DNA of 64,000 bases, taken from Batrachochytrium dendrobatidis JAM81. Its lineage: Eukaryota; Chytridiomycota; Chytridiomycetes; Rhizophydiales. Location of the stretch: contig NW_006281117.1 of assembly GCF_000203795.2 (NCBI RefSeq), positions 193,501 through 257,500 on the forward strand, written 5' to 3'. This document shows positions 4,301 to 55,547 of this stretch, one piece after another. The notes under the pieces were generated by a model, which worked only from the letters and a program-made list of their open reading frames with translations, did not search any database and was not told where the DNA came from. Both the position numbers and the translations under genes were made by a program. Position 1 is the first letter of the stretch; each line of letters opens with the position of its first letter.

Positions 4301-5881
4301 GGTTTCAACAGCATGTTAAAAATACCAAGCGCAGAAAATGGAACATAGCTATGCATGTCACCACCAAGAGTAGCATACACGGCAAAAGCAACACCAGGAA
4401 CAAACACCTCCTGTATCTGCAGCAAGCTAGTAATGAAAATGATCGATACACTAAACAGCTGTAATGACTTGGTTTGCAAATCACGCCAATAACGGATATG
4501 CTGTCTAAAAATTTCCTCCAGTGCACCGTACTTGATGACACGAATGCCGCCAAGAAACTCGCGTGAGATTGTAATGCGATGATCAAAAGTTTTGAGATAT
4601 CCATTGACAGCCTTGGACATTGCCCCTCCCAAGCCCATCTGGAAAAGGGTAAAGAGAATGTAAATGCCTGCCGCTGACCATACAGCGCGTCCAATCAATT
4701 GCGACAGCAAGTACATGGATATGACAATGTGCAGTGGAACCGACCACATTTGATTAATGGTGACAGACAAAAAGACGGACAGTGAGCGAACATCCACATT
4801 GATCATAGTCAAAATCTTTCCTTCAGAGAATATCTGCCGAGATTTGGGTGATAAACGCAGTGCTTTTTCATAAACCGCTCCAGTAAGAAGCGATGTTACA
4901 CGAATAGCAAGATCTACCTCGAGAGAGGTACGAGTACTATTAAGCAAAGCGATTACAAGTAAAATAGCCAAAAATGCAAATGAAATGGCCAAACCCGATC
5001 CAAGTAGCAACGACGGATCGTCTGGATTGCTGATAAATTTAAGTACCTAAACCCCAGAAATGATGATATACGCCAAAAAATTAGACCAGTGTAAAGTATT
5101 TACCGCCATAACCCAAGCAGCTATTTAATATACTGGGTATATGGAAAGTTAAAATACATATTTGCCAATACTCAAAATATGCAATATACTATTACAATTA
5201 TGAAACATCAATCCATATTACACATGCCTGTGGTAGTACAATGTAGGGGAGACCTAGATTAATGATAATCGAAGCCAATCTCAATATCGCCAGAAATAAC
5301 CTATCAAAGCAAAATTCAAAATAGATGGAAATGGTTAGCGTTTCTGCAGCCGTATTCACATAAAATAAAACACTAATGGATGCCAAAATGGATAGTGAAC
5401 CGCCAATTTTGTTCATTAATACAGAAAATTGTTCCGTTTACGTAAATGTGGCTATAATTGGACAAAGGCAACGTAAAAAAGTATATGCGCTTACATGGTA
5501 GGATAATAAATCGCAAAAAGAGTAAGCGATAGATTAGGACATTTATAATCTTTTGGGTTACGAGCATGTTTTGAAAAGTCATCCCAAAACCGAGCAAATG
5601 ACGCAGCAACAGTCACTGATTGTTCGCTTGTACTAATTAGTCCTAGGTCCTATTGGTACATTAAATTGAAATCAAGTCATGTTATCAAGGCAGTTCAACG
5701 AGTCGAAAATGTTTCAATTTAGATTTGGTCAACGCTAAATTCAAGATACAGGCAGACAGTGTGTCAATACAGAACTTGCCTGCTGCTCAAGTGGTTTTTT
5801 AGATCCAATTCGAATAATTGGAGTTATCCATGAAAGTGTCGGATAGCTCCACACATTGCGTGAAAGTCGATGGTCAACCAT
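1315..5881 (-). CDS. ABC transporter, ABCC (MRP) family, short form without TMD0
   Basis: Six exons on the minus strand: 5881-5780, 5649-5495, 5300-5228, 5046-4274, 4191-3171, 3099-1315 (1302 aa). The start gives MVDHRLSRNVWSYPTLSW, the conserved ABCC N-terminal elbow, so the TMD0 of long MRPs is absent. Order: TMD1, NBD1 (Walker A GAVGSGKSS at about 479, signature LSGGQ, Walker B IYLLDDP), TMD2, NBD2 (Walker A GRTGSGKST at about 1079, signature LSAGQ, Walker B VLVMDEA). NBD1 has Asp after Walker B where NBD2 has Glu, the usual ABCC asymmetry of one degenerate and one competent site. It should be an ATP-driven exporter of amphipathic anions or conjugates in the plasma or vacuolar membrane; the substrate cannot be read from sequence. 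Introns 1 and 3 are GC-AG type. Intron 2 contains a small inverted-repeat relic. Exon 3 is the least certain. Confidence 0.88.
5347..5454. mobile_element. MITE copy H (short relic, inside ABC transporter intron 2)
   Basis: The left end CAGCCGTATTCACATAAAAT and the right end, which includes TTTACGTAAATGTGGCT, are inverted copies of the terminal repeat shared by the other elements in this window, about 108 bp apart. The interior is short and AT-rich. It lies wholly within intron 2 (5301-5494) of the ABC transporter. Confidence 0.6.
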
Positions 5882-6209
5882 TTTTTTTAACAGGCCGATG
5901 GAACAGATTACAACCAAAAAACTAAAGTAGCTCAGATAACGGCCAAGACCAAGCCTTTTATGAGGTTTGAATCGAAAATAAAATTATGCGGCCTGTTGGC
6001 TAGGCAGTCCTTTGACAAACCAATGCAGGGTTGGGCTTTGTCATTCGAGTCGAATGACTTGATACCGCTTTTATATTGCCATTTATTTGATGCTTTTTCA
6101 ACAGCTAATATTTGTGCAAGATTACAACAGGAATCGTTTCCAGTTCATAACAGATGTATTGGAACACAATTATACACAAGATTCCAGCTGACTGTTATCT
6201 CTATTCTCA
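5882..6209. other. Intergenic, upstream of ABC transporter
   Basis: No gene or RNA is recognised here. It contains the presumed promoter of the minus-strand ABC transporter; an A-run lies immediately before its start codon. Short open frames lack any family features. Confidence 0.5.
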
Positions 6210-6611
6210 CGGCCGTATCCATGTAAAGTGGAGCCCAAATAAGGGTGTCTAGTAAACAGCCAACCCACACCAAATGTATTAGGCAATGGTGTCTTGAACT
6301 TTTCGACAAAGCTCTGGTTTTTCGTGTTCGGTTTTGTAAACAATCGGATATTCAAAGCATTCACATCATGGTTTCAATAGATTCCATATCAACAATCGAG
6401 CCCGATATATGGGTTGCAATGAGTCTGGTGATTGTGCAGTGCACTGCTATGCCAAACAGTGTTCATGTTTACAAAATCAAACTAGTTTTGAACAATATTG
6501 TCGCTGCTAGAGTCGATTTCTAGCAAAAAAGCACAATGAATATTTAACCACTCTTTCAAAGCAGTGAAAACTCGCTACAAGACTGTGATTCATGTCACGT
6601 GAATACAGCTG
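6210..6611. mobile_element. MITE copy A
   Basis: About 400 bp bounded by CGGCCGTATCCATGTAAAG on the left and the inverted form CACGTGAATACAGCTG on the right, followed by TA. The subterminal motif AATAAGGGTGT matches copies B, C and F. No transposase-like frame is present, so it is a non-autonomous element. Confidence 0.75.
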
Positions 6612-6909
6612 TAGTTTGACGCATTCAAACTTGGCCAAGCTCGACCAGTATATGGTTTTAAACGACAGTATAATGAAAGATGCACTGCAACTATTCTATA
6701 GATGGCATGTTGGCAAAAACAATCATGGCAATGACTTGTTTTTACACAAAAAATCATCTGTATAGCATACCCTGAATGCAGCTGTAATGCTCAAGGGTCT
6801 TTTTTAGATACATGCTGCCAAGGTAAGAGCAAAGCTGCATTTATTGTCTTCAGCCATAACCCATAGAAATTGCAATATACATGAATGCGCCGTAACTTAT
6901 AGGTCATTA

Positions 6910-7341
6910 CGGCCGTATTCATGTAAATAGAACACGAAATAAGGGTGTTTAATAAGTAGTCAGTCTCAATAGAATCATGATTCATATTAAATCTACTGGA
7001 CAAAGTTTAGCTGGTTTTCACCTTTGCGTATTTTATAAGCAACTGAGTGGATGTTTGCATTGCAGTTTCAATAAACCACATCAACAACCGAGTCTAATAT
7101 CTGGGTTACAATGGATGAATATGACGATCGTACAATGCATGGATATGCCATACGAAAATAGTATGTTTAAAACTATAGTTTGATTATGCGAATATCATAT
7201 GATGGACCTGTGCTTGGAACAATAGTTGGGGTGTCTATTAAAGCCAATACAGTAGCAAAATGCAGCGAATGTTATCTATCCTAGAGCAAATGAAAACCAA
7301 TATAAATGCAGAGCGTGTTCCATTTTACGTGAATACGGTTG
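6910..7341. mobile_element. MITE copy B (full-length, inverted partner of copy C)
   Basis: 432 bp flanked by TA on both sides (6908-6909 and 7342-7343). The terminal inverted repeats are CGGCCGTATTCATGTAAAT and, on the other strand, CAACCGTATTCACGTAAAAT. The interior is almost identical to the reverse complement of 8325-8774, including the stretches around 6975-7180. It has no coding capacity beyond chance open frames. The TA target site suggests mobilisation by a Tc1/mariner-type transposase encoded elsewhere (inference). Confidence 0.88.
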
Positions 7342-7780
7342 TAAATGCCGCTTAGCTACACATGTGCCCAATGACTTGATTTGGATATTCTGGTGGCTTG
7401 ATCAGGCCAAATGAAACGAATTCATTACATATCGAGTTTGTTGTGTATGGCTTGTTAGCTTAGTTTCACCTTTAGAAATCACCGCAGTTGGAATGTGATT
7501 TTGAGCATCCTTGAATAAACTGCAATGCAATATTGAGTATGTAGACTACTGAAAATAACCAAAAGTGACCTAAACCCAATTGACTATTATGCAGCTCGGA
7601 TGTATTTTGCCGGAATTCAAGTCTCTTTATTGGCTGTCCCTTAAATATTCTTAGTTGGGCTGGGGATCAAGAGTTTCAAGTAACCATTTGAGGCTTGAGT
7701 GGCAGTGTCGTGCTTTTTATTTCTCATGGCAACCAGATATCATAATTCAAATACTCGAGTCAGTTTGTCAAATCCTATAA

Positions 7781-7787
7781 TATAAAT
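7781..7787 (+). promoter_or_regulatory. Possible TATA element of the chitin deacetylase gene
   Basis: TATAAAT about 105 bp upstream of the ATG at 7893, in a generally AT-rich stretch. Position and sequence are the only support. Confidence 0.35.
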
Positions 7788-7892
7788 ACTGGCTTTGATT
7801 TCCGATAAATCGACGATTCCCAGTTTTTTTGCAAACTTGCTTGCGTAACCGGCTTTATTCACCTAGACATTTTTACTTTTTAGTCATTCAAC

Positions 7893-9680
7893 ATGACCTA
7901 CTTTTTGCTAATTGCCACGGCCATTCTTGGATTCGCCACTCAGTCTACGGTCGCTGCTGTGCCTGATGCTACCAAGTATCCATACAAATTTGATCCTGCT
8001 CCTGTCGATCCAAGCTGGAGTGCTCATTTCCTTACAGGAAACATACCAAACATTCCTCTCGCCACTGGTCCTGTTGTTACTCCTGATTTCTCAAAAGAAA
8101 TTACTCGATGTGTAAACGACAATGACTGGGGATTGACCTTTGACGATGGTCCAACGTGAGTTGTTTCAAAATTTGATTTCAATGTTTAATGATTCTTATA
8201 GTAGCACCATTCATATATGCGCTTGATTGTCAAATAATTGGTTGCATTTCGTTCATGCCACGAATTTGTACTCTACATTGTGTTTATTTGATTGGTACCT
8301 TGCGGTAACTCGGATGCATTATTACATCCGTGTTCATGTAAAATGGAACACGCTCTGTATTTGTCTTGCATTGACTGCTTATATTTTGCTTTGGAATAAG
8401 CAGTGGTTGAATATTCGCTGCATTTTGCTACTGTATTGGCTTTAATAGACACCCCAACTATTGTTCCAAGCACAGTGTCCATCATATGATATTCGCATAA
8501 TCAAACTATAATTTTAAACATACTATTTTCGTATGGCATATCCATGCATTGTACGATCATCATATTCATCCATTGTAACTCAGATATTAGACTCGGTTGT
8601 TGATGTGGTTTATTGAAACTGCAATGCAAACATCCATTCAGTTGCTTATAAAATGCGCAGAGGTGAAAACCAACTAAACTTTGTCCAGTAGATTTAATAT
8701 GAATCATGATTCTATTGAGACTGACTACTTATTAAACACCCTTATTTCGTGTTCTATTTACATGAATACGGCCGTAAGCCACTTTTTGCACCTAAACCCT
8801 AAACTGACCGTTTTATTTGAATAGCAACAACACTCAAATCGTCCTTGACGCTTTAAAGGCTTCTGGAATTAAAGCAACCTTTTTCGTTATTGGCTCTCGT
8901 GTCCTTGATGGATATCAATGGCTCAAGGCTGCTCACGATGATGGTCACGAAATTGGCATTCACACCTGGTCCCACCGTGCACTGACCACTCTTACAAACG
9001 AGCAAGTTGTCGCCGAGTTGATATGGGCTGCTGCCATTATCAAAGAAGTTATTGGTGTTACTCCCCGATACTTCCGTCCTCCTTGTAAGAATATGTTGTT
9101 TTTGGTATACATTATGAATGTGCTAGTTTATGCAACAGAATATTCAATATTATTATTGCTTCAATACAAATCATGATAAATAGATGACTCCATGGACGAT
9201 CGTGTTCGCGCCATTGTCAAAAACATGAATCTGACTGTTGTTGAATGGTCATATGCCACTGGTGATACTAACGGTGTCACAGATGTAGCCCAGCTTATTG
9301 CTGCCCGTGCTCAAAGCCCAACAAAAAGTGGAACCATTTCTCTTATGCACGATTTTGCTTACCCTTATGCTATTCAAGCTCCTGCAGCCATTTCCGCTCT
9401 TCAACAGTCGAGTGTAACTCCCAAACTACTTTCCGGTTGTCTCCAGGTTCAGGCAGTTTACAACGAGGCATTGTGGATGAATATTTCCCCACCAGTTTCT
9501 CGAAACGGATCTCAGACAGGTGCCAAGCCTCAAACAACTGGACCCAGTTCAAACTCGAGCTCATCTTCAAACTCATCTTCTGCTAGCAAGATCCAACTTC
9601 AATCTGCTTTTGCATCCACTATTTTCGTTGTTTCTCTGAGTACTATTGCAATTGTCTTTGGTACTGCTATCCTTATGTAA
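7893..9680 (+). CDS. Chitin deacetylase (NodB/CE4 polysaccharide deacetylase), GPI-type
   Basis: Three exons: 7893-8155, 8825-9084, 9184-9680 (339 aa). It has an N-terminal signal peptide (about 1-22). The NodB domain shows motif 1 TFDDGP (82-87, split by intron 1; catalytic-base and metal Asp), motif 2 HTWSH (metal His pair), motif 3 RPPY (restored by splicing intron 2) and motif 5 LMHD. A Ser/Asn-rich linker and hydrophobic C-terminal tail predict GPI anchoring at the cell surface. It would remove acetyl groups from chitin to give chitosan in the fungal wall. Intron 1 is 669 bp, far longer than the other introns here, because it contains a 450-bp MITE. Further MITEs lie upstream and just after the stop. 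The family call is secure; physiological role (wall maturation, zoospore encystment) is inference. Confidence 0.93.
8325..8774. mobile_element. MITE copy C (inside chitin deacetylase intron 1)
   Basis: 450 bp with TA on both flanks (8323-8324 and 8775-8776). The right end CATGAATACGGCCG is the inverse of copy B's left end, and nearly all of its length aligns with the reverse complement of 6910-7341 with scattered substitutions and small indels. It accounts for two-thirds of the host intron (8156-8824), leaving the splice sites intact. Confidence 0.88.
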
Positions 9681-9701
9681 TCGTTTTATCCTTTTGATTT
9701 C

Positions 9702-10084
9702 ACAGCTGTATTCGCGTAAAATAGAACATTTTTGTACTCATGCATGAACTGCCTTTATTTTGCTTTGAAATAAACAATGGTTAAATATTCATTGTGCTTT
9801 TCTACTAGATATTGATTTGATAGACACTCTTGATTCTTGTGTATTTGGAATTACTCGACCATTTTTTAATTCTCGGCACAACTTGAGAATGGACAATATA
9901 AACTATATTCGTGATATTGCTCATTGTTGAACGATTGACAGATTGTGTTTAACCAGTGAGTTGTAACCTTGAGCATTCGTTCATGATACAATATTGTCCA
10001 GTAAATCGACATCAATCAAACACGAAACCGACTTTTTATTATACACTCTTATTTAGTGTTTCATTTTACGTGAATATAACGGTA
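9702..10084. mobile_element. MITE copy D, just downstream of chitin deacetylase
   Basis: The left end CAGCTGTATTCGCGTAAAAT starts about 22 bp after the chitin deacetylase stop; the right end is TTTTACGTGAATATAACGGT. The interior shares TTTGCTTTGAAATAA and the GTCCAGTAAAT region with other copies. It occupies nearly all of the 474-bp gap to the next gene and may supply the 3' UTR. Confidence 0.75.
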
Positions 10085-10154
10085 TGTAACAATTGCCAGA
10101 TATAGCATCTATTAGTGTCATGACGTAAACTATGCTTCAGCGGCGCAAGTACTA

Positions 10155-13100
10155 CTATTCTTTTTGTTTTTTGGATTTGCGATATGACTTTTGAGGAATG
10201 GCAGCATCATCATTAATTAACCACTCAAACTCTTTGGTATTTGCCAGCTCAATATTTCCAAGCTGCTTTGAAGTTGGGAGTAGTTTTGAAAAATCACTGA
10301 GCCGGTCGTACTCAACATGCAAGCCAGTTGCCACTTCTGCTAGTTTGCGATCTCGTTGTCTCCATTCAGATATCATCTCAATTTCGCGTGTCGACTCTTG
10401 ACTTGTGACATGCAGTTTCATTCTTTCAAACTCAATTCGTAGCTTTCGCTCGGATTGGTATTGAAGTCGATTTTCGTGTAATGCAGTTTCAAGTTGTTCA
10501 CAATGGGCTGTTTCAGAAGTGAGTGTATCTTGCGTAGATGCCAGTTGAGTCTGCAGTGTCTGTGTTGTATGTGTCAACTGTGCAATGGTATCTACATTAC
10601 GCTGCATGGTAAGTTGAGCTTGCTCAAACAGATTCGATAATCGACGGATTTCGTTATTGCGCTCTCGAAGAATGTCGCTTGTTTCGCTTTGGAGAATCTC
10701 GATTGCTTCAGATAACTCGACTACCCTTTGCTCTGCTGCACTCAGCTTTGTTTGTACCGACAAATAATTTTCATTGCTTCTATTCAACTCGGTACTTAGC
10801 CGAGTATTGTCGCGTTGTGCAATACCTGCCTCTTGTCGACTCTGCTTTAGATTTTCCTCGAGAGAATTTTGGCTTTTTTGCATTTGATCCTGCTTCATTT
10901 TGAGCTTAACATTTGTGTCAACCACCATAAGCTGTTTGCTTTCAAGTGATTTGTAATCTCTAGTAAGTTGTGCGTGGTTAGTTTGCAATGTTGAAAGCTC
11001 TTGTCGCAGCTGCGCCTCTAATATTACCGCCTTTTCTTGATACTCTGTAAATGAGCTGTTGATACTGGTAAGCTCATCTTCCTTTTGTCTGAGATCTGCT
11101 CGTGTCGTCTTGATTTTTTCAGTAAGCTGTCGTTTATCATTGGACAGATTGGACTTTGCTGCAGAGAGTTTTTCAATCTGCTCATCCAAAAGCGCAGCCT
11201 TTTCATCAGCAACACGCCTCACCTGAGCCATTTCAAATGTCAGTACATTGACGTTGGATAATTCTCGATCAAGTTGATTCTGAAGATCCGTAGTTTGAAA
11301 CATCAGCTGCTCCTTTTGTTCTTGAATCTTTTTGATGGTTTTTGAATCATCTATACGCAAATCACCCAGTTCTTTGATGCGAACATCTCTAGAAGCAATT
11401 TCTTTTTCGCACTTTTGTTCATACAATTTTGTCGATGCTTCAAGCTGATCCTTGGACCGTGACAAACTCTTTAATGCAGCTCCTAATTTTTCACTCTCAG
11501 ATCGACTACCTTTGAGTTGCACCTCCAACTCTTTTTTTACAGTACTCCATGCCTCGCTCTCTTTGGTGATTTTGGCAGTCCGCAATTCTGCCTCTTTTTT
11601 ATAATCATTAAACTGATGGTCCAGCAATCTCAAATCAGCCTCCAGCTTTGATTTTTGCATAGACAGTTGCTGGATGTTTTCCTCGGCATCGTGTAGCTGT
11701 CGAGTCGTAGTTGCCAATTCTGATGATATAACAATATTGAGTTCCTCCGACTTTTGCTTACCTTCTCCGCATAGATTAAATTGCTGAACCAATTCATCCA
11801 ACTCAAACTCCAATTCTCGGATTTTTGTTAGCGAAATACTGAGTTCTTTGGCAGATTGCTCAAAATCAATAGAAAGCTTTTCAAGATTTTTTTGAAGAAC
11901 ACCGTTGCGTGACTCAGCCGCCTCTGTTCCTCGCTGGGCTTCCTTTTTTAAACGAGTCATTGTATCATCCATTGCTAGAAACTCTTTAAAAGAGTCTTGA
12001 AGCTTTTTTTTCATTTCTTCGACTGATTTCTCGGCTTCCTTGACACCAAAATCTTTGCTCTTGACTATTTGATGCATTGTTGCAATCTCTTCATGAAGCT
12101 GCAGGGTAAACGCAAAATCATAAAATCTATTAGATTCAACATATTACAAACGTGTCCAACATACTTGTGCATTCACTTACTTTTCGCTTTTCCTCTTCAG
12201 CATTAATTAAAAATGCCATCAAGGAGGAGACTTCGGTTTTTAAATGTTGAACATCAAGCTGCAGTCGTTGACTCTCGCTCTGTTGCCATTCCTCTGCAAA
12301 CATGTAGAAATAAACCGATCGGTTGAGTGCGGCTCTTAAACGCTCAACATTTGCTGATTCCATCTGTTCCTTTCTTCCCAGACTAAACAATTCTCCACGT
12401 AGTCTCATGATTTCTTTATCTCGTGCATTTATCATGCGTTTATAAATCTCACCTGAAACAACATGACCAGAATGCGATGGGATAGTGTGTGTGGCATTCC
12501 GTTTGTGTATCGAGTTCATTCCAAGGTCTTCGCGAGCTTGGGATGCTTTTTGTTGCTGAAATACCCATCGATCTTGCTCTACTTTTTCGTGGGGATCAAT
12601 GTACCCAGCCGGTTTTTTCACTGTTGGATCTTTAATAATATCAAAATATGGAACTGGTCGTTGTGGCATGGCATCAGCGACTTCGTCTATTAAATGGATG
12701 GATGTCAAGGCAGCTGAATTGACGTGCCGTGAAAGGCAATGGTCAAACGTGGCTAAAAGAGTATGTTGGCATTGCTTGCATACATTCAATACAGATGTTT
12801 GATTTGACGTGCTATCCAATTCATTATCATGATGCTCGTCTGCGTCTATTTCCTTGATATTTGATTGAAATGCGTTATTCAATACATACTTTTCAGTAGT
12901 TGGATCTTGGTGATGAATATGCTGCAATGGAGAAGTGGTGGAAAACAATGGGTCTGCTTCTGTTTGTAATCGTATATTATCGGACTGATTTTTTTGGTTG
13001 GATACGTAGTTGTGGGTATGTTTTGGTGATAGTATCGAGGTGGAGAGTGGTGGAAGTAATGGCGGACCAGGTAAAAAGTGGTGTAAGGCTCTATTACGCG

Positions 13101-13215
13101 GCTGAGAGAAAAGTGCATCCGCGACTTTATCTGGATTGACTGGTTCAGAAAGCAGCATTGGTGTTGTATTTTGGTCTCCAGATGGTCGACTGACGGTGGC
13201 ATTTTCAATCTGCAT
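10155..13215 (-). CDS. Long coiled-coil protein, family not recognised
   Basis: Two exons, 13215-12181 and 12098-10155 (992 aa); the 82-nt intron has a GTAAGT donor and CTGCAG acceptor. The first about 170 residues are low-complexity. From about residue 250 to 970 the protein is almost pure heptad coiled coil, rich in Glu, Gln, Lys, Leu and Ser, and the last residues are basic (SYRKSKKQKE). No catalytic motif, membrane segment or signal peptide is visible. Such a protein would be a scaffold or tether: a golgin, a centrosome or basal-body component, or a ciliary protein. In a flagellated fungus the last is attractive, but nothing in the sequence decides it. It is transcribed divergently from the gene at 13642, with 426 bp between the start codons. 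Confidence 0.8.
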
Positions 13216-13641
13216 CGTAATGTATTGAATCTATCTAAAATGCAGATATTTGCAAAGAGAAATGCTGCAGATTAACAAGTTTGATTGCTTCAATTTGATT
13301 TGAATTCAACAAGCGATAATAACTTTGCAGGAACAATTTTTGGCAAAGTTTTGATTTTAGCCTTTTAAATATCCCTTTATATAAAAGCGATACGTTTGTA
13401 ACAACAGGCCATCTTGTATCTTTTCCAATATATGATTGATAGCACGATTACTTGAAGTGGATTCTCAATTTGATTACTTTTATAGCATTTTCCCAATATT
13501 TTATTGCCAGATAGTATGCAAGGCAAGCAGATAAAACAAATGACCGGATCACACGCTAAATATCCAGGTAAGGCACCACCAAACATCAATAGCTGTTTTG
13601 TCAATTGATAGTCAAATCACACCTTTCATACTCTCAATTTA
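13216..13641. promoter_or_regulatory. Divergent promoter region between two unrecognised genes
   Basis: 426 bp of AT-rich sequence separating the starts of the minus-strand coiled-coil gene and the plus-strand 747-aa gene. No repeat, tRNA or recognisable operator is seen. It must hold both promoters unless one gene has a distant 5' UTR exon. Confidence 0.5.
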
Positions 13642-15885: not shown

Positions 15886-16323
15886 TCCGTATCGGGTATG
15901 CCTGCCTCTGTAATGCAAATAGCCAAAACTATAAATGGATTGCTAAATAGTAACATTACAATTCCAAACGGAAAAACAACGAGCCATTTCAAAAATGAGC
16001 TAAATGTGTCGATTTAGTTATCAAAAAGCAGTGACGAGCCGTGGAAATGATTAGATTTATCAGAAATAAAATCCAGTGACGTTTGTAATGTAACCCAAAC
16101 AACTGATTCATCCTCATTAAAAAATAGCCCCAAAAAGCAAAACAACTTGAAAAGTAAAGAAACAAACATTCAATCATTATTGATTCAACACTAGAGTAAA
16201 TCAAAGTTCCCGCTGGCATTACACATTTTATCAACCACGTTTCAAAAAGAAACCAGTGCATGATAAAAATGGTTGAATCAGGCTGGAATAGATACCAAAA
16301 GTGAAACCAACACGAATAGTGGC
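15886..16323. other. Intergenic between convergent genes
   Basis: 438 bp between the stop of the 747-aa protein and the stop of prolyl oligopeptidase. Nothing recognised apart from AT-rich 3' flanks of both genes. Confidence 0.5.
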
Positions 16324-19205: not shown

Positions 19206-19230
19206 GGATCGAGTAGTAAAGATGGTTTTA

Positions 19231-19562
19231 CTGCCGTATTCACGCAAAATGAAACACTTTTGAATCCATCTTGCTGCCATTTCCCTTATTTTGCTTTGAA
19301 ATATTCAATTATTTCTATTCAACTTCACTTCTTGAATAAGCACAATGTTCATCTTATAAACTCTTGTATTCTAAAATCATACATTCGCGTTCTAGTTCAC
19401 ATCTCAAATATGCAACAGTTTCCTTGTTCATCGTTAAAGATTCATCAACTCAAAAAGATTCAAAAAACACTATTGTTTAGTAAATAAGATAGAATTCATC
19501 ATTCCATAATACTGTGTGTTTTATACCCTTGCTCAGTATCTTGTTTTACGTGAATACAGCTG
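19231..19562. mobile_element. MITE copy E, abutting the 5' end of prolyl oligopeptidase
   Basis: Left end TA-CTGCCGTATTCACGCAAAAT, right end TTTTACGTGAATACAGCTG; about 332 bp, sharing the TTTTGCTTTGAAAT motif with copies C and D. Only 25 bp separate it from the prolyl oligopeptidase ATG, so it must form part of that gene's promoter or 5' UTR. Confidence 0.75.
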
Positions 19563-19721
19563 ATACAACATGAGTTTGTTTGCAACATAATCTTGATTAT
19601 TATATTATGCATACACTCAATGAACACTATTCTCGTCAAACATAATGATTTCATTTGCAGAAATGCTCAAATGATCAGAAACTGATCATTGTTTCTAATG
19701 AACATCATCCATTTGGAACAT

Positions 19722-20791: not shown

Positions 20792-20971
20792 GATGTTGAT
20801 TACAAGATTAAAAATGACAGAAATTCAAACTTGAATTTTTGGCCATAAATTTGGCCAAAAATACAAAATCAATTGCTTGAACATTCATTCAACTCGATTC
20901 CTTGACATAATATTTGACACTTTATTCGTGCTGTAGATTCAGATTCAACTCAATTTCATTTGTCATTCAGA
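20792..20971. promoter_or_regulatory. Divergent Derlin/Listerin promoter with a perfect palindrome
   Basis: 180 bp between the two start codons. It contains TTTTTGGCCA (20836-20845) and its exact reverse complement TGGCCAAAAA (20852-20861) separated by six bases. A palindrome in the middle of a divergent promoter could be a dimeric factor site acting on both genes. No factor can be named from sequence. Confidence 0.5.
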
Positions 20972-26900: not shown

Positions 26901-27634
26901 GACGGATAGAGAATGTTATGCACTAAACATGAATTTTACATTATGATTTAAGCTTTACAGAAAGGTACTATAGTCCCAAGATTGTTGAAATGGAGCTTAA
27001 ATCGGCAGAAACATATGATACTCGGGACACGGAAGCACTTGGTATTCGTGTTTCAATGTGGTCGTGTGAAGTCACAGCTTCGTACACCATTGAAGATGCT
27101 GTTTTAGAGCTTGTGATTCAATTACCAAGTTCATACCCTTTGCGACTAGCACAGGTTGGAAGCGGCAAAGGAGGAGGTAGAGCAGCAGGAATCAATGAAG
27201 CACGATGGCGTGCATGGGTATTGAGTGTTTCGGCGGTCATGGCATCACAGAATGGAAGCATTATTGATGCACTAACAGTATTTAACAAGAATATTTCTAT
27301 GCATTTTAAAGGCATTGAAGATTGTGCAATCTGTAAGTGAAATTTGTAATGGATTTGGATGACATTCATTGTCATGCTAGTTTTAAACATATTCTGAATC
27401 TGCATTACTACGATTAGGTTACTCTGTTGTCAGTGCAATTGATCGAGCATTGCCGAATAAGCAGTGCAAAACGTGCAAAAACCAATTCCATGGATCGTGT
27501 CTATACAAGGTACGTATTGAATCTATTTATTTTTCATACTATTAAACTAATTGAGCCATTTATGTTTAAACTGGAATCAGTGGTTTAAATCTTCTGGACA
27601 AAACACATGTCCACTGTGTCGCCAGCCTTTTTAA
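20972..27634 (+). CDS. LTN1: Listerin, E3 ubiquitin-protein ligase of ribosome quality control
   Basis: Thirteen exons: 20972-21048, 21123-21423, 21496-21690, 21773-21965, 22115-22267, 22355-22614, 22723-22859, 22966-23767, 23853-26429, 26541-26836, 26953-27332, 27418-27509, 27581-27634 (1838 aa). The N-terminus has the Ser/Arg-rich listerin start (AASSRASSAL) followed by WPNLYDKLALDADRRVREA; the middle is HEAT/ARM-like helices; the C-terminus has the RWD-like segment and a RING-CH finger (CAIC...CKTC...FHGSCLYKWF...CPLC). It ubiquitinates nascent chains stuck on 60S subunits. Intron 1 uses a GC donor (AG|GCAAAA), chosen because no GT donor gives the right phase. The 149-nt intron 21966-22114 is preferred over shorter alternatives. 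Confidence 0.93.
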
Positions 27635-27794
27635 AGAAAATCAACAGTTGATTTTCATGCGATTCTACTGTGATTCTGACTAGATTTAAGCAATAAAATA
27701 GCTTTCATGAACAGTTTTGTAAAGTTAGAAACACGTGATCGTCAATGTCAAAATGATTGAATCAAATTCATCGTTTTGTTGACCATTTCCGACA

Positions 27795-28414
27795 ATGTCA
27801 AAAGTAATGCGAAGCATCCTCAAGACCGGCGAGACTGGTGAGTTGGATAGGTTGCTATGGAGTGTTTTACTGGACTGATGTGTTCTGCTTCTGTTTTTAC
27901 AGCCATCCGCACCAAGGAGTATCAGAATCGTCTTTTCTGGGAGGTGAGAACTTGTTTAAACGCTCACTTTTGGAGTCTTGATAGTTGTATGATTTCATCA
28001 ATGACCTGACAGTACAAGTATGACTTGGCTGTCATGAGTAGCCGAGTCAAATCTTTAATTGTACAATTCGTCTGATTCATTTAAGAAACCATTGCTTGTT
28101 GAGTTGAATGGCTTTTGTAACTGACCTCATCTACTTGTTTAATGTTATCTAGAAGGACTCTCATATTCCAACCCATGGACGTGGAAAGAATGATGGTTTC
28201 ATGTATGCCACTGCTCTGGCTTTGACTGCTGGTAGTGTTGGCATTTCTGTCAAATGCATCTACGATTTCCTTCACGTATGTGTTTTCTTGCTCATGATCT
28301 GGCAATGTGGCTTTCATCAATGTGTATAACCTGGAGTCTTTGTATTTACATCATTTCATATTATGGCTTGAACATCTTTATTTTGTACACACCATGCACT
28401 ACTAGGCAAAATAA
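27795..28414 (+). CDS. Cytochrome c oxidase subunit VIIa
   Basis: Four exons: 27795-27837, 27903-27943, 28153-28275, 28406-28414 (71 aa). Sequence order fits the COX7A family: YQNRLFWEKDSHIPTHGRG (compare the FQ..N.LPVHLKGG pattern), then one hydrophobic helix (GFMYATALALTAGSVGISVK) and a short tail. It is a small single-span subunit of complex IV in the inner mitochondrial membrane. The last exon encodes only Ala-Lys-stop. It begins 160 bp after Listerin and its stop lies 18 bp from the stop of the opposing G-patch gene. Confidence 0.82.
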
Positions 28415-28432
28415 ACGAGATACAAAGTTGTA

Positions 28433-29589
28433 TTAGGGTTCACTTTTCTGTTTTTTGGTCTTTTTAGACTTTTTGGGTGGGTCATCTAGGTTAAGATCTG
28501 CTTGTGATCGTTTGAGCTTGGACGAGTGTGCCGTCTTGGACTTTTTTTTATCGTCCTGCCTATCTGCTTTGCTCCGTTTAGATTTAGATTTTTTACTACT
28601 TGTAGTGATAGTGTCGGTGGGTTCTTTTATCAGATCTATACTTTTACAGCCATTAGATGCGTCTTGGTTTTGTTTCTCCAACTCTGTAGTAAGGGTATTG
28701 TGTTGCACTTGGGGTTTTTCTGGCTGGTAGATCCGAGCACCTTTTCGTGCTGTTCTACCCTCGCATGCAAGCAACAAATCCTTGTCTGATACCTTGATTG
28801 AATAGTCTTTGTCAAGATCACTTTTTTCAGACTTGTTCTCACTGTATACGATGGATCATTATGGTTAGAATGTCTAATCACTCCATTGAACATCAAATCA
28901 ATAAAGTGTATCTCGACCTTTTTACAAATGAGCCGTAAAGAAGTTTCTTTTCTTCTTGTCGCTGTTCGGCCTGAGATGCTTTTTGGACTGTTACCTCACC
29001 TTCATCGGAATTGATTTGAATCGATGCAGATGTTTTGTTGAATACATGATCCCTGATAAAAATAGAATTAGAAACCAAATGTGATTCAGATTAAAAATGT
29101 AGTTTAGGCTTACCACCAAGCGAATCCCCATTCACCAGATTTTGCACCAAGCTGATTTAAATGAAACATTGTTAGTATAAAACTTCAAAGATGGCAATGA
29201 AATGAGTAATCTCAAACTACATACACCATCTGTGTCGTTTTTTACACCGAGGGATATAGCTTTAGTGAGACCAGCTTTATAGTCGATGGGTTGTTGTAGG
29301 ATTGAGTTTGATATGGCAAGTGTTGAAATAAGTTTTTTGTAAGTTTCCAGATTGATGTTGAAAATCATTTCAAATGGATAGATTCAGTCCAGTTTAGAAA
29401 GGTTGGTGTTAGTATATTGGCTCTCAGTCCAGCAAATTATAAATGATTTATCAGCAATTGATATCCACGACTATGTTGGGATGGACTGTAGGAACCATTG
29501 CGAGCCATTCACTTGCCTCCATTCGTTCCCAATGCCTGGCCTTGTTCCCAGCCATATTTCTTCAACTGTTTTTCAGCAAACGATACCAT
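28433..29589 (-). CDS. G-patch protein, GPATCH4-like
   Basis: Five exons: 29589-29517, 29274-29225, 29151-29114, 29052-28918, 28841-28433 (234 aa). The start gives MVSFAEKQLKKYGWEQGQAL followed by a G-patch (LGTNGAGLTKAISLGVKND), then LGAKSGEWGFAWWDHVFNK, the WWDHVFNK signature of GPATCH4. The rest is Lys/Ser-rich with nuclear/nucleolar localisation-type tracts. G-patch proteins of this group activate DEAH helicases in ribosome biogenesis or RNA processing (family knowledge). Intron 1 is GC-AG (GGAG|GCAAGT); exon 4's donor (AG|GTCGAG) is weak. A short protein for this family, but complete. Confidence 0.85.
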
Positions 29590-29664
29590 TCGATAGCGTT
29601 ATGGTTTAAAAATAAATGGTCAAGTTTCAAGAATCCGTTTTGGAGTTGAACCTGCCAAATTTTA

Positions 29665-29951
29665 CAGTCGTATTCACGCAAAACATTAAATAAGGGTGCA
29701 GTGCATAAAAGCAGTCATTTCATGGAATGATTCTCATCATTGTGTCATGAACTGTTTGATTTAGTAGTTTTTCTTGTGATGACAAATATAAAAGCAGTTG
29801 TATTCCTGAAATGATTTCTTGAACTAGAGCGTATCTGTGATTTTGGAATACAACAGAGGATATAAAAACAATCAATTTCTAACAAATATTTAACCTGTTT
29901 ATTCCAAGATACTGCAAGATAAAGTATTTCATTTTACGTGGAGATGGCTTT
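29665..29951. mobile_element. MITE copy F
   Basis: About 287 bp with left end TA-CAGTCGTATTCACGCAAAA and a decayed right end CATTTTACGTGGAGATGGCT; subterminal AATAAGGGTGCA matches other copies. It lies upstream of the GPATCH4-like gene and downstream of the DUF4436 gene. Confidence 0.65.
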
Positions 29952-30060
29952 AATTAAAATAATGATTGGTGGATAACAAGCCAACATTTAACCACTTGTA
30001 AAAATCCAATTCTCAAATTGGTTGGGTATGAATGCCCATCAAACGTATCCTGGCAATAAT

Positions 30061-31449
30061 TCAAGTGATGACCACAATAGGGTTTGAGTGGTGAGGTGAA
30101 GGAACATGCAGAAAAGTTCCACTATGTCTGCGATTAGTCAAATCAACCGAATCGACATCTGAATGGGTATATGCACTACAGCGATCATCGTCGATGGAAG
30201 CAGTATTGCGGTAATTGAGAGTTGTACCGTTTATACTTGTTGAAATATTATGGGAATTTATACCCACAAGAGATGAACCCAACTCAGATCCATCACCACC
30301 CAACATGGCACCAGGTATTCCCATGACTGGATTGTAATGATGCCGTTTTTCTCGTTTGTATCGAACAACATAATTAAGCATAAGAAGAAACATGGATAAT
30401 GCGGCCAAGCCAATGTTCCAAAAGTAACCTGCAATATCCAATGTGCATCCGACAGGAGGAGAACCCGGTTGAGAGCTGCGAATGGCAGGCAATGAAAACA
30501 ATAAAGAAGCAATAACAGCAATCGTTGGTGGTTCAACTTTGCGGTTTCTAAACCATAATGTTGCAGCTAGAATGAATGCAGTGATGGATAAAATCCACAT
30601 GATCGTGAATACCAACTGTTGATATGAAATGAGTTGAACGAATGCAAATAAAAGTTTAAATAGTTTGACAATTATGGAGTACATACGAGCGAGAAGAAGC
30701 GGGACGTCCAAGATCGATAAAAAGTGGCGAGAACTTTCAGCGTAGGGCTGACATCAGAATTGAACGATGCATCAGCTTGCCAGCTATTTGTGCTAGCCAT
30801 GGTAGCCAAATAGATTGGAATTGGAGTTCTAATCAAAATTTTAGTAATTTACTCCTCAATACAACACATAATAACGATTTAATACTGACTGAACTCCCGT
30901 GGTAGAATTAACGAAACTTGCAGAAACCACATAGGAAATATTGTAAGTATCAAAAGGATAACGATTAATGTTTCCCGAGTCTATATTAAGCATTGCATCT
31001 TGTTTCCGGATGTACAGATTAGTGGGAAAGACAATGACTTGAGTATCAAACACGACAGTGATTATGGTACTTGGACGATACAAATCCCCAGATGTTGAAC
31101 CCATCAAACGCCCACAAGGAATAACCGATAATCGAAGCTATTGAGAATATCAGTTTAGTAGAAATCAGCAGAACAAACGACACAACAGAAATACCTTGTA
31201 ATTGAAGGATACTAAATCCAGATTAATAATAGTAGCAAATACAGCGATACCATTGAAATCAATCAAGTCCGTGACTGGGTTGTAATTACGCTGAGCATTG
31301 TCAGGATCTAGCATTAAAGACGAAATATTATCAGAATGCCAAGCCAGTAAAGGAACACAGACAGACAGCAGAATGGTTCCGCATGCAGCAAGTATCAGTT
31401 GGATGCGAGTGCGTCTTTTTACCCGACTCCAAGGTCGAAACAAAAACAT
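30061..31449 (-). CDS. DUF4436-type fungal membrane protein
   Basis: Four exons: 31449-31195, 31137-30890, 30828-30687, 30615-30061 (399 aa). A basic cytosolic start (RPWSRVKRRTR) precedes a first membrane helix (about 18-38), a luminal or extracellular beta-rich segment with INRYPFDTYN and several Asn-linked glycosylation sites, then three C-terminal helices (LVFTIMWILSITAFILAATL; TIAVIASLLFSLP; YFWNIGLAALSMFLLMLNYVV) and a Ser/His-rich cytosolic tail. The organisation and YPFD motif fit the DUF4436 family; its role is unknown. The donor of exon 2 (CA|GTCAGT) is the only phase that stays open. Head to head with the TFIIIC gene, 133 bp apart. Confidence 0.8.
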
Positions 31450-31523
31450 GTCGATGATTAAGAGTTGACTTGTTGCAGCAAATTGATTACAACAATCATT
31501 GAGCCATTAATACTATCGAAAAC

Positions 31524-31579
31524 TCAGAAATATCATCAGATTTACTATCAGAAATATCATCAGATTTATTATCAGAAAT
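31524..31579 (+). repeat. 24-bp tandem repeat in a 5' leader
   Basis: Two near-identical 24-nt units, TCAGAAATATCATCAGATTT plus ACTA or ATTA, and a third partial unit, ending three bases before the ATG of the TFIIIC gene. It sits in the divergent promoter or 5' UTR. Confidence 0.85.
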
Positions 31580-31582
31580 CAT

Positions 31583-34500
31583 ATGGCCAGATCCACTAAT
31601 ACTATCACACATTCAGAATCAGATTGGGAATCCTCTCATGAAAGTGAGGACTTGAGCTCAGACCATGCCAGTCTGATAGAACCATCCACAGAAACCATCT
31701 TATCTGGTGTATCCAAAGCCAGTGCTTCATCCTCAAATAAACTTAATCATACATTATCTACTTGCAAAACCCTTCGTTCTAATGCTAGTCATCCGGATTC
31801 TATTGATTCTAATATTCAAACCATCTCATCAACTCATCTTAGTCCATCCTGTCCTGAACCACTTGATCATCAGAAAACTGCTTTACATACTCGAATTCAT
31901 CAGATATTACTTGATGCAGTTCATGCTTCAGTCACTAGAGACTTTCATCACAAGATACCGTCCAGTTTCCTTGCAGCTAAACAGAATCCTGATTTGATTG
32001 ATGGAGTCGATATTAAAATCATTGATATTACATTGGATAAAGGTCGTTTATATTGTCCTATTCATGGCTGCAATCGTCACTTCAAGCAGTTTGAAGGCAT
32101 GAAATATCATATATCAACCTTTGAGCATGATATACCAAGTTTCATCAAATGTTATGCTGCTGGTGCTACTGCTGGAAAAAGATTTATCTCGCTCGAAGCC
32201 AACATTGCAGATTCTTCAACATCCAAAGCCATGCATGAATCTGTTGCCTTGGTTGATTCCGATTTAGCTCATAGAACAGCACATATGACAGAAATCGATC
32301 AGATTTTAAATTCATCGGATTGGAATGTGGATCCTAATTCTCCTCCTATTATCCTTGGTCACTACAGTTGGCTCAACCTTGCTTCCCGTGTTACTCCACC
32401 TCTGCCAATTATTTTCTCGTCAAAAATATCTGCTCCTAAACGTACAGAAGTCCCTCTCAATCGTCTAGCAAGCATAGATGAACTTTATATAAACAGTCTC
32501 AATGGCAACCACCACAAATTGCATAAAATGGATATATTACCATCAAAAAAGCTCATTGGTATCCTTTCTATCGCAGAAGCAATTGTTGATCAAGATCTTG
32601 TTTCTGTGTCCAATTTTAAACCCCCTTTTGATTTAGTACTGCCAAAGTATGTGTTGATCTCGTATTATCGTGTTTATGAACTACTAATGCATGATCTAAT
32701 CCCAATTTTTACTGCAATGCTTTATCATACCTATTAGAGATGTAAAATCCTATTTTGCAAAACAAAATGATCTTGAAGTAACCATTAAATCTGGACCATC
32801 CAATACAAAACATTCTATACCGCATATGACATCGGTATACTCTGGTATATATATTCAATTCACATATCATATTTTCGAGTCAATTTTTATTCAACGCTAT
32901 CCATTCAACATCAGTTTTGATTGAATTACCAACACCTATTCATCTATGGTAATTAAACTATTTAGATTCTGGTTCCCGAAAACGAATGATTTTGAATGTT
33001 GGATGTTCCGTGTGGGGGCTAGAATGGTGTCCTGGAATACCTCGATCTCATAGTATGTTACTTGCTTTTAACTGATTGTATTTTTATTCCCTAGATAAAA
33101 TATACGCACTATCATATAGTCTAACATGTGCATGCATTATTTAATTGATTGCTTTTCAGAATGTCAGTATTTGGCAGTGGCTGGATATCGTGAATTTAAT
33201 GACAATCATGTGTTAAACGAACGGCACACAGTTGAGCAGCATGGCGAAACTTCCATGAGTGGTGCAATTCAAATCTGGAGTGTTCCTGCGTTTCCTTCAG
33301 AGAAAAACATACCAAAATTAGAATTGATTATTCTTCATAAGCGTGGGCATGTTTTACATTTAAATTGGTGCACGCCTGCTTTGTTTGTTTCTCCCAAACA
33401 AAATGTAATTCAATATTTTAAAATATGTTTAAATACTATACTAGAAACTATAGCCTGCGTGAAAATATTATAGTCTGCTAATTCTATTTTGAAAATGTGT
33501 TGATTAGTCTACTGGACAAATGGGCGTTCTTGCAGCGTGTTTTGGAGATGGATCGGCTGCTGCATTTTCAGTTCCACTTCCTGACTCATTTAGAGCTTGT
33601 CTATCCAAACAAGAGCAGACTGCGTATGAAACCCATCCCATAAGCTGTACGTTTTCTGATAAAAATACCAGATTCATTTTATTGCATTGTTTGGATTTTT
33701 GCCAGTTTCCCTTTGAAGATTAACAGAATGCAATCTACTCACTGTATTTTAGATGCTATTCACAAGAATAAGCTGGGACATAGTGGCTTGATACTAGACA
33801 TGTCTTGTCCAGATATGCTTTTTTGGCGTGTCGCTTGGGGATCACAACACATTCTTGCTGTAGGATCACAAGAAGGTATGTTTTAATGCTTTATATATAC
33901 TATACTTTATTTAGGTAGCGATATTTGATTTATAATTTGGTCTCGTACTACTTTTTAATTTATTATCCACTGTTATTTGTTTATGTAATTAAACTTTAGG
34001 TCGAGTGTTGATAGTAAATACAAAAACAGCAATTAAATCTGCAGACTTTGACATTGATCGAGGTAGTGATACGCTGGCAGTGTTAATGATTCAAATCAAT
34101 GTTTTGATTAAACTTGTTTTTAATACTTACTTTACTTTTGACTATGTGTAGATGTTATTGTTGGTTTTCAAGCTCATGACTCTGCAGTTCGACATATGAG
34201 TTGGTGTATACTAGATAAGCAACCAGTACGCCACTTGATTTCCGCTGGACTTGATGGGAGAATTTCATATCGAGACATTTTAGATCCTTGGGCTCGTGTA
34301 GATATTTCAAGATTTAGAAGCAAGTAGAGTTTTGCAATATTGGATTATTCGTAGAATTATATACTAATGGTGGGTATACTTTGTGGGGTGTAATAGTTCC
34401 TTTTGCTGCTGTGACATGGATGAGTGCATATGACTCCATCATACTATCAGACACAGAGTATTACGTTCGAATCATGAGTTTGACACCAGATACTAAAGAA

Positions 34501-36071
34501 GAGCTGGATTTACCTAAAAGACATGCCAAACAACTGGCCTCTCATAATGCAACTATTTGGGTATGTGCTTGCTTCATGGTTTTCATTTGTAAATTTTATA
34601 ATAGAATATTTATTTTCAATACGCCCGACTTTAATCCGATCATGATTTTAGCGAGTAGATGGATCGTTATTTTTTCCATTTGTGGCAAGTGCATCTGCAA
34701 ATGGAGTTTTTATGCTGGCCTTTACACTAAAGCTAGGTCGAAAACCACGAAAGCCAATTGGAATCTATCGTTTACAATGTGAAGCTGAAAATACACATTC
34801 AGTGGTTTTTGATGAGATATGCTTGGAATCGGTAATGTAAATTGGGCGGTTTACATCTCTGTATCAATCTCCCATATGATGGTAGATATCTGACTACTGC
34901 GATAACATCACAGCTAATGATTCAGCAAATCATCTTGTTTCATATTTACTAATATTCAATATTTTTACCATTGGTGACGTTTAGTCTTTGTCTGAATCCG
35001 TCGAGATTCATCCAATATACAATGGAGTTCAGCAAGTAAGTGTAAACAGTATAAATTACCGTCATACTCATGTAAAATAGAATGCGTGTACAACCAAATT
35101 ACAATTTTGGACATGCTCCTTCTGTTCATTTGAAACAGTGATGCATTGTACGATCATCAAGTTTGAAACCATATTCATTTATTGTAATCCATATATTGGA
35201 CTTGATTGTTCAGATATGAGATTTATTTGACTTGCAATGTAAGCATTCATTCAGTCGCTTATACAGAATGAGCACAAAAAATGATTAAACTTTTTCAGAG
35301 TTTAGAGGATACAATATTGTTTAGTAAATTTTATCAGTCATTTTATTGAGATTGGCTGTTTATTATACACACTTCTTTTGTGTCTCATTTTACGTGAATA
35401 TGGCGGTAACTGGTCAATGAGATGGCTAACCAAGTATACTAATTTTTATGACTATTGGTTTTAACTTGTTTAAATAGGTTCACTGGTGTCCAAATTTGTA
35501 CAATGAGGTACATCATATAGATACAGAGGATGATTCTTTGACATTGATAGACGAAAAAACGTCTATTCAAGCTGCCAAGACACCCAAAGTTGGCACTGGA
35601 CGAACTGGGAAAAAACCACATGAAAATAAGAAATCTCAAAGTAGTGGGAAGAAACCATCGATTGTGAAATCGTCAGTAAGGTCATCCAAAAAAATATTGG
35701 TGGCAATTCCATTGATGGAAAAACAAGCATTGAGCGACCAAAGTGCTGGTACTTCAAATACTAAATCTAAGCGCACTTCAACATCCAGCACAACTTTCTC
35801 TCGAGCTCACAGTAAAACTATGGATTTAGTTTCTGACAAAATCGTTGATTCAGCTGATGATTTAAATATTGATACGGCTTTAAATCAAGACATGCAATTG
35901 AAGAATATACGGGATACCACCATCGCGACCAACACAAATCCTAATAGACCAAAGAAACCACTGCATTATCTTGAAAATGGCGAATACTGTAGTGCACAAT
36001 TGATTGCATCAGCTGGAGCTCGTGGCTGGGTTCGCATTGATGCTGTATTTTCTGGCCTTTCCGTAAAATAA
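31583..36071 (+). CDS. RNA polymerase III transcription factor TFIIIC subunit (Tfc6/GTF3C2-like), zinc finger plus WD repeats
   Basis: Twelve exons: 31583-32646, 32738-32844, 32966-33052, 33160-33404, 33508-33646, 33753-33875, 34000-34062, 34152-34319, 34397-34560, 34652-34831, 34985-35035, 35478-36071 (994 aa). The N-terminus is Ser-rich and acidic, then a C2H2 finger (YCPIHGCNRHFKQFEGMKYH). The centre and second half form a degenerate WD propeller (VWGLEWCPG, LAVAGY, IQIWSVP, GVLAACFGDGSA, VRHMSWC, LISAGLDGRI). The last exon is Lys/Ser-rich and disordered. This matches the TFIIIC p110/Tfc6 class that binds the B box of tRNA genes. Intron 8 is read as GC-AG (A|GCAAGT) with an acceptor at 34396; a 35-nt alternative exists. 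The final intron (35036-35477) holds MITE copy G. Confidence 0.8.
35059..35406. mobile_element. MITE copy G (inside the last intron of the TFIIIC gene)
   Basis: 348 bp with TA on both sides (35057-35058, 35407-35408), left end CCGTCATACTCATGTAAAAT, right end ATTTTACGTGAATATGGCGG. The interior shares the sequence around ATGCATTGTACGATCATCA with copies B and C, in the orientation of copy C. It makes up most of the 442-bp intron. Confidence 0.85.
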
Positions 36072-55123: not shown

Positions 55124-55547
55124 TTTATTGGTCGTATTTCACGTAATGAAGTTCAAATTGCCGAATTTTCTCGTTTAAAATTCACATCAAATTTGAATAT
55201 TAATTCAAGCTGAAGAATCTTTTAATAAATTGTATTCTTGTGTAATTGGTAACATGAAACTGTTTAAATTTCTGTTTTGAATAATTCGAGTTTTTAGAAT
55301 TCAAGAATAACTGAGTGAATTTGGTATTCAACAAAAAAGAAATTCAAAATTTTAGTTGGATTGTATCATTATGACGTATTCTGTCTTTATTAAAACCAAT
55401 TTTAAGCAACATATTCTGCTGTTGCTTATTCCAGAACAAAGTTGGAATGTAAAATGTTTGACTTGACAGAATTCTTTGAAAATACTTCATGACCACGTGA
55501 CTGTGGAAACTCGTAATTCGATAAATGCGAAGTTTACTCGATAAGAA
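55124..55547. promoter_or_regulatory. Divergent promoter region of Pol gamma and TPP2
   Basis: 424 bp of strongly AT-rich sequence between the two start codons, with repeated AATTC/GAATT words (for example GAATTCAAG near 55297 and AATTC near 55360). No defined regulatory site is recognised. Confidence 0.5.

What the first reader, a model, noticed from the sequence alone, without database searches (positions are those of the whole stretch)
5347..35406. A MITE-like element family with a conserved terminal inverted repeat and TA target site
At least eight intervals (5347-5454, 6210-6611, 6910-7341, 8325-8774, 9702-10084, 19231-19562, 29665-29951, 35059-35406) start with a variant of C-R-G-C-C-GTATTCAYGTAAAAT and end with its inverted form; the better-preserved copies (B, C, G) are flanked by TA. 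Lengths run from about 108 to 450 bp, none codes for protein, and interiors share blocks (AATAAGGGTGT, TTTGCTTTGAAATAA, GTCCAGTAAAT). TA flanks plus short inverted repeats fit Tc1/mariner-derived MITEs (family knowledge). I do not know of a description of this family.
Basis: partly seen in the sequence, partly recalled or inferred. Interest (0 to 1): 0.75.

Follow-up and report, generated by a model that had tools for sequence, protein, structure and literature searches.

The report
Deleted mariner transposons in frog chytrid
These short repeats are cut-down copies of a mariner-type transposon, with more than two thousand matching ends in the genome of what is likely the frog-killing fungus Batrachochytrium dendrobatidis; our search met no complete transposase gene there, and in the sample compared every near-identical pair of copies sat close together, likely because neighbours overwrite one another.

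Summary
A model built from 30 copies outside the window's contig recovers all eight intervals (best E per interval 3.9e-56 to 8.1e-10; reversed window 0 hits). Genome-wide, 2,338 terminal repeats match at up to 2 mismatches, against 8 for the reversed pattern. Of 277 exact 20-base ends, 219 follow TA.

Parentage: in 12 of 12 fetched transposase (DDE_3) loci, of 24 found, the catalytic domain lies between family blocks in the same order and strand. Window copies C, D and H keep a decayed first catalytic block. The copies are internally deleted Tc1/mariner derivatives. No DDE_3 match has an open frame above 172 aa. TA duplication itself was not shown: 0 of 12 joined flanks met an empty site.

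Unexpected: among 74 copies, 13 of 2,701 pairs are at least 90% alike; all 13 lie under 40 kb apart, and the next pair is 81.6%. Identical tracts stop 20 bp or more inside an element in 6 of 16 aligned pairs. This favours local gene conversion over fresh jumps without proving it.

The parts
5347..5454 (+). copy A, 108 bp; TA on the right side only
   Evidence: (5347-5416, E 8.1e-10)
6210..6611 (+). copy B, 402 bp; TA on the right side only
   Evidence: (2.5e-31)
6910..7341 (+). copy C, 432 bp; TA on both sides; inverted near-twin of D
   Evidence: (1.4e-46)
7084..7245 (+). decayed first catalytic block of the transposase inside copy C
   Evidence: E 4.4e-10; reversed control none
8325..8774 (-). 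copy D, 450 bp; TA on both sides; lies in an intron of a polysaccharide deacetylase gene
   Evidence: (3.9e-56)
8466..8600 (-). decayed first catalytic block of the transposase inside copy D
   Evidence: E 4.2e-8
9703..10082 (-). copy E, 380 bp; TA on the right side only
   Evidence: (two pieces, 8.7e-22 and 2e-17)
19231..19562 (-). copy F, 332 bp; TA on the left side only
   Evidence: (two pieces, 1.5e-18 and 5.3e-10)
29665..29950 (+). copy G, 286 bp; TA on both sides
   Evidence: (two pieces, 1.1e-19 and 1.3e-8)
35059..35406 (-). copy H, 348 bp; TA on both sides
   Evidence: (2.6e-26)
35141..35230 (-). decayed first catalytic block of the transposase inside copy H
   Evidence: E 4.1e-9
55312..55453 (+). 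possible ninth, worn copy without recognisable ends
   Evidence: E 2.6e-4

Best explanation
The eight copies belong to one family of internally deleted derivatives of an IS630/Tc1/mariner transposon, which likely inserted by cut-and-paste at TA and of which our search met only broken transposase genes in this assembly. Shown: same ends and same block order in short copies and in transposase-bearing copies; TA at most intact ends; decayed transposase sequence inside some short copies. Inferred: a transposase, with 39 residues between its second and third catalytic positions, bound the roughly 20-base terminal repeats, cut elements out and pasted them at TA (preferred context T-TA-A); copies that had lost parts of the gene were moved in trans and multiplied, and the gene itself then decayed. 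Also inferred, at about 0.55: the second class of 97-100% identical neighbours arose mostly by short-range gene conversion between copies already in place, in either orientation, with tract ends often in or near the terminal repeats, rather than by fresh jumps.
For: 12 of 12 fetched DDE_3 loci (of 24 found) have the family's 3' block just downstream and an inner or 5' block just upstream, same strand. L073 holds 5', inner, catalytic and 3' blocks in order over about 1.6 kb; L074 is a 734-bp copy with both ends and an open catalytic fragment. Transposase pieces match 11 of 47 copies (first catalytic block; 10 of 46 leaving out L074) and 2 of 47 (second-third block; 1 of 46 leaving out L074), 0 in reversed copies. 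219 of 277 intact ends follow TA; TA is 6.8% of dinucleotides held. Neighbour twins: 13 of 64 pairs within 40 kb are at least 90% alike, 0 of 2,637 others. Tracts stop 20 bp or more inside an element in 6 of 16 pairs; in the ten other whole-length pairs except none dropped from that ten, the outer 30 bases at each end hold 18 differences in 600 against 35 in 4,125 inside.
Against: No empty site was found (0 of 12), so TA duplication is unproven. Several of the 12 loci are near-copies of one another (L065-L070 and L072 share long stretches), so they are not 12 independent cases. L074 lacks TA on either side. The spacing of 39 comes from related copies; in L075 the stretch is broken by a stop and shifted frames and would count differently. 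The N-terminal DNA-binding domain gave no Pfam match. Against conversion: three twin pairs are alike to the TA on both sides, as a jump would leave them; starting conversion between partners 70-80% alike is hard; in the sample nothing lies between 81.6% and 96.7%, although one neighbour pair picked later is 91% alike.
Confidence: 0.82

Rival explanations
1. The near-identical neighbours are recent local jumps, driven by a transposase that is intact in other strains or missing from this assembly, and the family is still mobile.
For: Three of 16 pairs are alike right up to the TA on both sides with unrelated flanks; both orientations occur; local hopping is known for Tc1/mariner elements (recalled).
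Against: Six of 16 pairs have tracts that stop 20 bp or more inside an element, and end bases differ more than inner ones; no DDE_3 match has an open frame above 172 aa; no twin was met on another contig (0 of 2,637 distant pairs).
Confidence: 0.35
2. The short copies arose apart from the transposase gene and only share its ends.
For: Many MITE families elsewhere share only their ends with the partner transposon (family knowledge); 36 of 47 copies gave no transposase match at E 1e-3.
Against: Blocks are collinear well inside the ends and decayed catalytic motifs are present.
Confidence: 0.03
3. The elements belong to another superfamily with TTAA or TTA/TAA targets (piggyBac, PIF/Harbinger).
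For: The context is mostly T-TA on the left and TA-A on the right (19 and 22 of 23).
Against: TTA on the left and TAA on the right are not a direct duplication, TTAA is not present whole on either side, and the transposase remains are DDE_3.
Confidence: 0.03
4. The twins are assembly errors: one copy placed twice.
For: The assembly was not checked against reads here.
Against: Flanks differ completely just outside most twins, both orientations occur, and tracts often stop inside the elements.
Confidence: 0.05

Closest known systems
Tc1/mariner (IS630-Tc1-mariner) superfamily, DD39D families (PlantMar; DD39D/GT)
   Same: DDE_3 catalytic domain, TA at the ends, short terminal repeats, 39 residues between second and third catalytic positions.
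   Different: A 2020 survey gives PlantMar as restricted to plants and a few oomycetes (PMC7325037, passages); this host is a chytrid. No tree could be made from fragments, so membership in that family is open.
Stowaway-type MITEs (recalled)
   Same: Short, many copies, TA flanks, derived from mariner-like elements.
   Different: Terminal sequence CAGCCGTATTCACGTAAAAT is not the Stowaway end (recalled CTCCCTC...); no sequence comparison to Stowaway was run.
Published repeat catalogues of Batrachochytrium dendrobatidis (PMC11797018, PMC12204190, PMC9926174, PMC5364385)
   Same: They report large repeat fractions; PMC11797018 lists 18.15% unclassified repeats and 3.28% DNA transposons for JEL423 V3, among which this family presumably lies.
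   Different: Tc1 has 0 occurrences in the main text of all four; PMC11797018 names Mutator, Cacta and Maverick types as commonest DNA elements. Supplementary libraries were not readable here.

Membership tests
IS630-Tc1-mariner superfamily | DDE/D transposase of the DDE_3 type between the element's ends | tested here: met
   PF13358 over its cut-off in L062 and L065 fragments; inside family blocks in 12 of 12 loci. All are broken.
IS630-Tc1-mariner superfamily | duplication of a TA target | tested here: inconclusive
   TA before 219 of 277 intact ends, but no empty site in 12 tries.
IS630-Tc1-mariner superfamily | terminal inverted repeats | tested here: met
   44 paired copies in the loci held; 2,338 ends genome-wide.
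IS630-Tc1-mariner superfamily | N-terminal helix-turn-helix DNA-binding domain | tested here: inconclusive
   A piece upstream of the catalytic part reads like one by eye, but Pfam gave no match.
DD39D family (PlantMar) | 39 residues between second and third catalytic positions | tested here: met
   L076 fragment; the same stretch stands in L062, L065 and P0001.
DD39D family (PlantMar) | grouping with that family in a transposase tree | not tested
   Only fragments were available.
MITE | short, TIR-ended, without intact transposase, in high copy number | tested here: met
PIF/Harbinger or piggyBac | direct TTA/TAA or TTAA duplication | tested here: not met
   T-TA on the left and TA-A on the right in most of 23 copies, which is not a direct duplication of either.

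The most novel reading that the evidence does not exclude
The family has stopped jumping but lives on as a set of local templates: a copy that suffers a break is rewritten from the nearest copy on the same chromosome, in either orientation, with the terminal repeats serving as the homology that starts and ends the copying. Distance along the chromosome, not descent by transposition, then decides which copies look young, and ages read from copy identity are wrong for such families.
Probability: 0.4. Interest if true: 0.65.

Novelty: new member of a known kind. Interest (0 to 1): 0.42.

Why it matters
It gives a parentage to a high-copy repeat in a genome where one assembly lists about 18% unclassified repeats (PMC11797018, passages), and places a transposase with DD39D spacing in a chytrid. 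The neighbour pattern bears on a general question: do near-identical short transposon copies mark recent jumps or recent copying between neighbours? Strain assemblies of the same fungus could settle it. Inverted near-identical pairs 1-35 kb apart would also be natural substrates for inversions (inference).

Tried and rejected
Rejected: an inverted-only rule for twins. The first five pairs were all inverted, but of the 13 pairs nine are inverted and four direct, and of the nine neighbour pairs picked later three are inverted and six direct. Rejected: nested insertions as empty sites; most split matches were the transposase-bearing copies themselves and none was followed as a nested insertion. 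Spanning hits were nearly all a query's own locus under loose scoring; one weak hit elsewhere (C1_985807 on L034, 72.6% over 62 bases) was not taken as an empty site. Joined flanks: 0 of 12. PF03184 (DDE_1) gave no match, but its control genomes gave none either, so this shows no absence. Plasmid records: no match. Rfam: only a tRNA. PDB sequence search: one hit at E 0.96, taken as chance. The 126-aa transposase piece found one protein, a B. dendrobatidis fragment; candidate length is tied to query length, so full-length relatives could not appear. The N-terminal piece had only a herpesvirus family at E 0.071, below its cut-off.

Limits and dropped rows. Of the 74 copies, 40 are on C1, because L031-L060 are the first places listed; L001-L030 were fetched by likeness to copy C. 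Identity there is that of the best local stretch of at least 150 bases, not of whole elements. Genome searches scored 40 candidates each out of 103 to 757. L079-L094 were picked by eye as same-contig neighbours, so they are no unbiased test of closeness and serve only for tract ends. One search aligned 16 pairs: 9 of the 13 pairs (four pairs of the C27 cluster were left out) and 7 of the 9 picked pairs; left out were L082/L083 (likeness runs past the element, 842 bp) and L093/L094 (91%). The ten pairs used for end-versus-inside counts are the 16 less the six with tracts stopping inside, a choice made after seeing the tracts. In one search, 30 of 31 eligible copies were used.

Full report
WHAT WAS CHECKED. 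The window lies at G000:C11:193501-257500 in an assembly of 23.49 Mb in 33 contigs. The organism is likely Batrachochytrium dendrobatidis: a transposase fragment (L065) is 94% identical over 112 residues to a protein so named, and a window protein has a partial match (83% identity, 18% of its length) in a record coded Hompol1 (that this stands for the chytrid Homolaphlyctis polyrhiza is recalled). The TIR core occurs 26 times in the window at up to 3 mismatches, against a mean of 7.8 and at most 13 in 100 shuffles. A profile built from 30 copies, none from contig C11, recovers all eight intervals with best E from 3.9e-56 to 8.1e-10, plus a doubtful ninth (55312-55453, 2.6e-4); the reversed window gives none.

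SIZE OF THE FAMILY. The 17-base end pattern at up to 2 mismatches occurs 1,139 + 1,199 times in the genome; read backwards it occurs 2 + 6 times. At two ends per copy this is of the order of 1,100 copies, roughly half a megabase at about 450 bp each (my estimate; single-ended and worn copies are not counted properly). The exact 20-base end occurs 277 times and is preceded by TA in 219 (79%), while TA makes up 6.8% of dinucleotides in the sequence held. Among 42 end-paired copies of up to 800 bp, 23 have TA on both sides and 38 on at least one; of the 23, T precedes the left TA in 19 and A follows the right TA in 22. In the window C, D, G and H have TA on both sides, A, B, E and F on one (read).

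PARENTAGE. A search for the catalytic domain PF13358 (DDE_3) gave 24 places, the best at 35.5 bits against a cut-off of 28.6, with no open frame above 172 aa. Twelve of the 24 were fetched. In 12 of 12 the profile of the short copies matches just downstream on the same strand (its 3' block) and just upstream (an inner or 5' block). In most of them about 280-320 bp of second-third catalytic region lies between the two. The twelve are not independent: L065-L070 and L072 share long stretches. In L073 the pieces follow in order over about 1.6 kb: 5' block, a stretch of 0.8-0.9 kb, inner block, catalytic block, 3' block without its terminal repeat. L074 is a 734-bp copy with recognisable ends and an open catalytic fragment, though without TA at its sides. 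Conversely, pieces of the transposase of L076, used apart, match 11 of 47 copies for the first catalytic block and 2 of 47 for the second-third block at E 1e-3 or better, with 0 in reversed copies; leaving out L074, itself a transposase-bearing copy, the counts are 10 and 1 of 46. Window copies C, D and H are among them; A, B, E, F and G are not. I conclude that the short copies are internal-deletion derivatives. In L076 the second and third catalytic positions are 39 residues apart, the spacing called DD39D; a 2020 survey gives that family (PlantMar) as restricted to plants and a few oomycetes (PMC7325037, passages). A tree was not possible with fragments.

NEIGHBOUR TWINS. Copies C and D start 1.4 kb apart in opposite orientation and are 97.5% alike over 365 bases; over whole length the figure is 91%. 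The next best long match to C in the genome is 71% over 244 bases, while shorter pieces of 60-80 bases reach 83% (40 of 103 candidates scored). Among 74 copies of 150 bp or more from L001-L060 and the window there are 2,701 pairs. Thirteen are at least 90% alike over 150 bases or more; all thirteen lie within 40 kb of each other (64 pairs do), and none of the other 2,637 reaches 90%. Nothing in this sample lies between 81.6% and 96.7%. Fisher's p is 2e-22, treating pairs as independent although the 13 come from 8 clusters. One neighbour pair picked later is 91% alike. Of ten copies whose relatives were sought genome-wide, three had a relative at 90% or more over a long stretch, each less than 2 kb away on the same contig; seven had none among the candidates scored. 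Both orientations occur.

JUMP OR CONVERSION. Sixteen twin pairs were aligned (one search printed the alignments, cut in the middle). Three are alike right up to the TA on both sides with unrelated flanks, as a jump would leave them. In six the identical tract stops 20 bp or more inside one element: C/D (88 columns short), C21 1562/1570, C33 867/868 (24), C1 2405/2406, and two of the C27 cluster. The other seven are a few bases short of an end or run slightly past it. In the ten pairs other than those six, the outer 30 bases at each end hold 18 differences in 600 against 35 in 4,125 inside (p 5e-5); leaving out CpG changes, 14 against 32 (p 0.001). One pair (C21 1405/1413) has 3 differences in 624 bases, all within the first six. 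A jump copies both ends, so these patterns favour copying between elements already in place. Against this, conversion between partners only 70-80% alike is hard to start and should leave intermediate likenesses, which are rare here. I take conversion as the better reading for most pairs and a jump for some.

SETTING IN THE WINDOW. D lies in an intron (8156-8824 by GT...AG sites read) of a polysaccharide deacetylase gene whose second exon matches PF01522 at 3.3e-25. C ends about 550 bp before its start codon and E begins about 20 bp after its last frame ends.

WHAT IS IN PRINT. I searched the held library for Batrachochytrium with MITE and transposable element, with mariner, with 'miniature inverted' and with transposon/repeat content, for DD39D with fungi and mariner, Chytridiomycota with Tc1, mariner and transposase, and MITE with gene conversion and local transposition. 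I saw listings, and passages of PMC6572847, PMC11797018, PMC12204190, PMC9926174, PMC5364385, PMC7325037 and PMC8533490; I read no paper whole. The passages seen do not name this family. PMC11797018 gives 18.15% unclassified repeats and 3.28% DNA transposons for JEL423. Supplementary repeat libraries and Repbase were not readable, so an unnamed consensus of it may exist there.

VERDICT. The family is a new member of a known kind. The unexpected part is the strictly local second class of near-identical copies in the sample.

Noticed in passing
window 7893-9680: A polysaccharide (chitin) deacetylase-like gene carries copy D in its first intron, with copy C about 550 bp upstream and copy E about 20 bp downstream.
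   Followed up: partly
genome-wide, places: At least 10 of the 24 DDE_3 places lie within 25 kb of a contig end (lengths of C8, C9 and C10 were not seen), and several are near-copies: the transposase remains look subtelomeric and carried by segmental duplication.
   Followed up: partly
L073:4770-5560 and the like stretch in L070: Two transposase-bearing copies hold a 0.8-0.9 kb stretch between the 5' block and the catalytic part, with an open frame on the opposite strand that has no Pfam match.
   Followed up: partly
window 55312-55453: Weak match to the family profile (E 2.6e-4) without recognisable ends; a worn ninth copy or chance.
   Followed up: no
right flank of the copy at G000:C1:211007: Thirty bases of this flank match exactly three places on C33 and read like the 3' part of a tRNA gene (by eye); the copy seems to sit beside a tRNA gene.
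   Followed up: no
window 1102-1185: tRNA-Leu (CAA) gene found by two programs.
   Followed up: no
window 52014-54119: Minus-strand frame of about 700 aa matching the mitochondrial DNA polymerase exonuclease domain (PF18136, E 4.4e-61).
   Followed up: no
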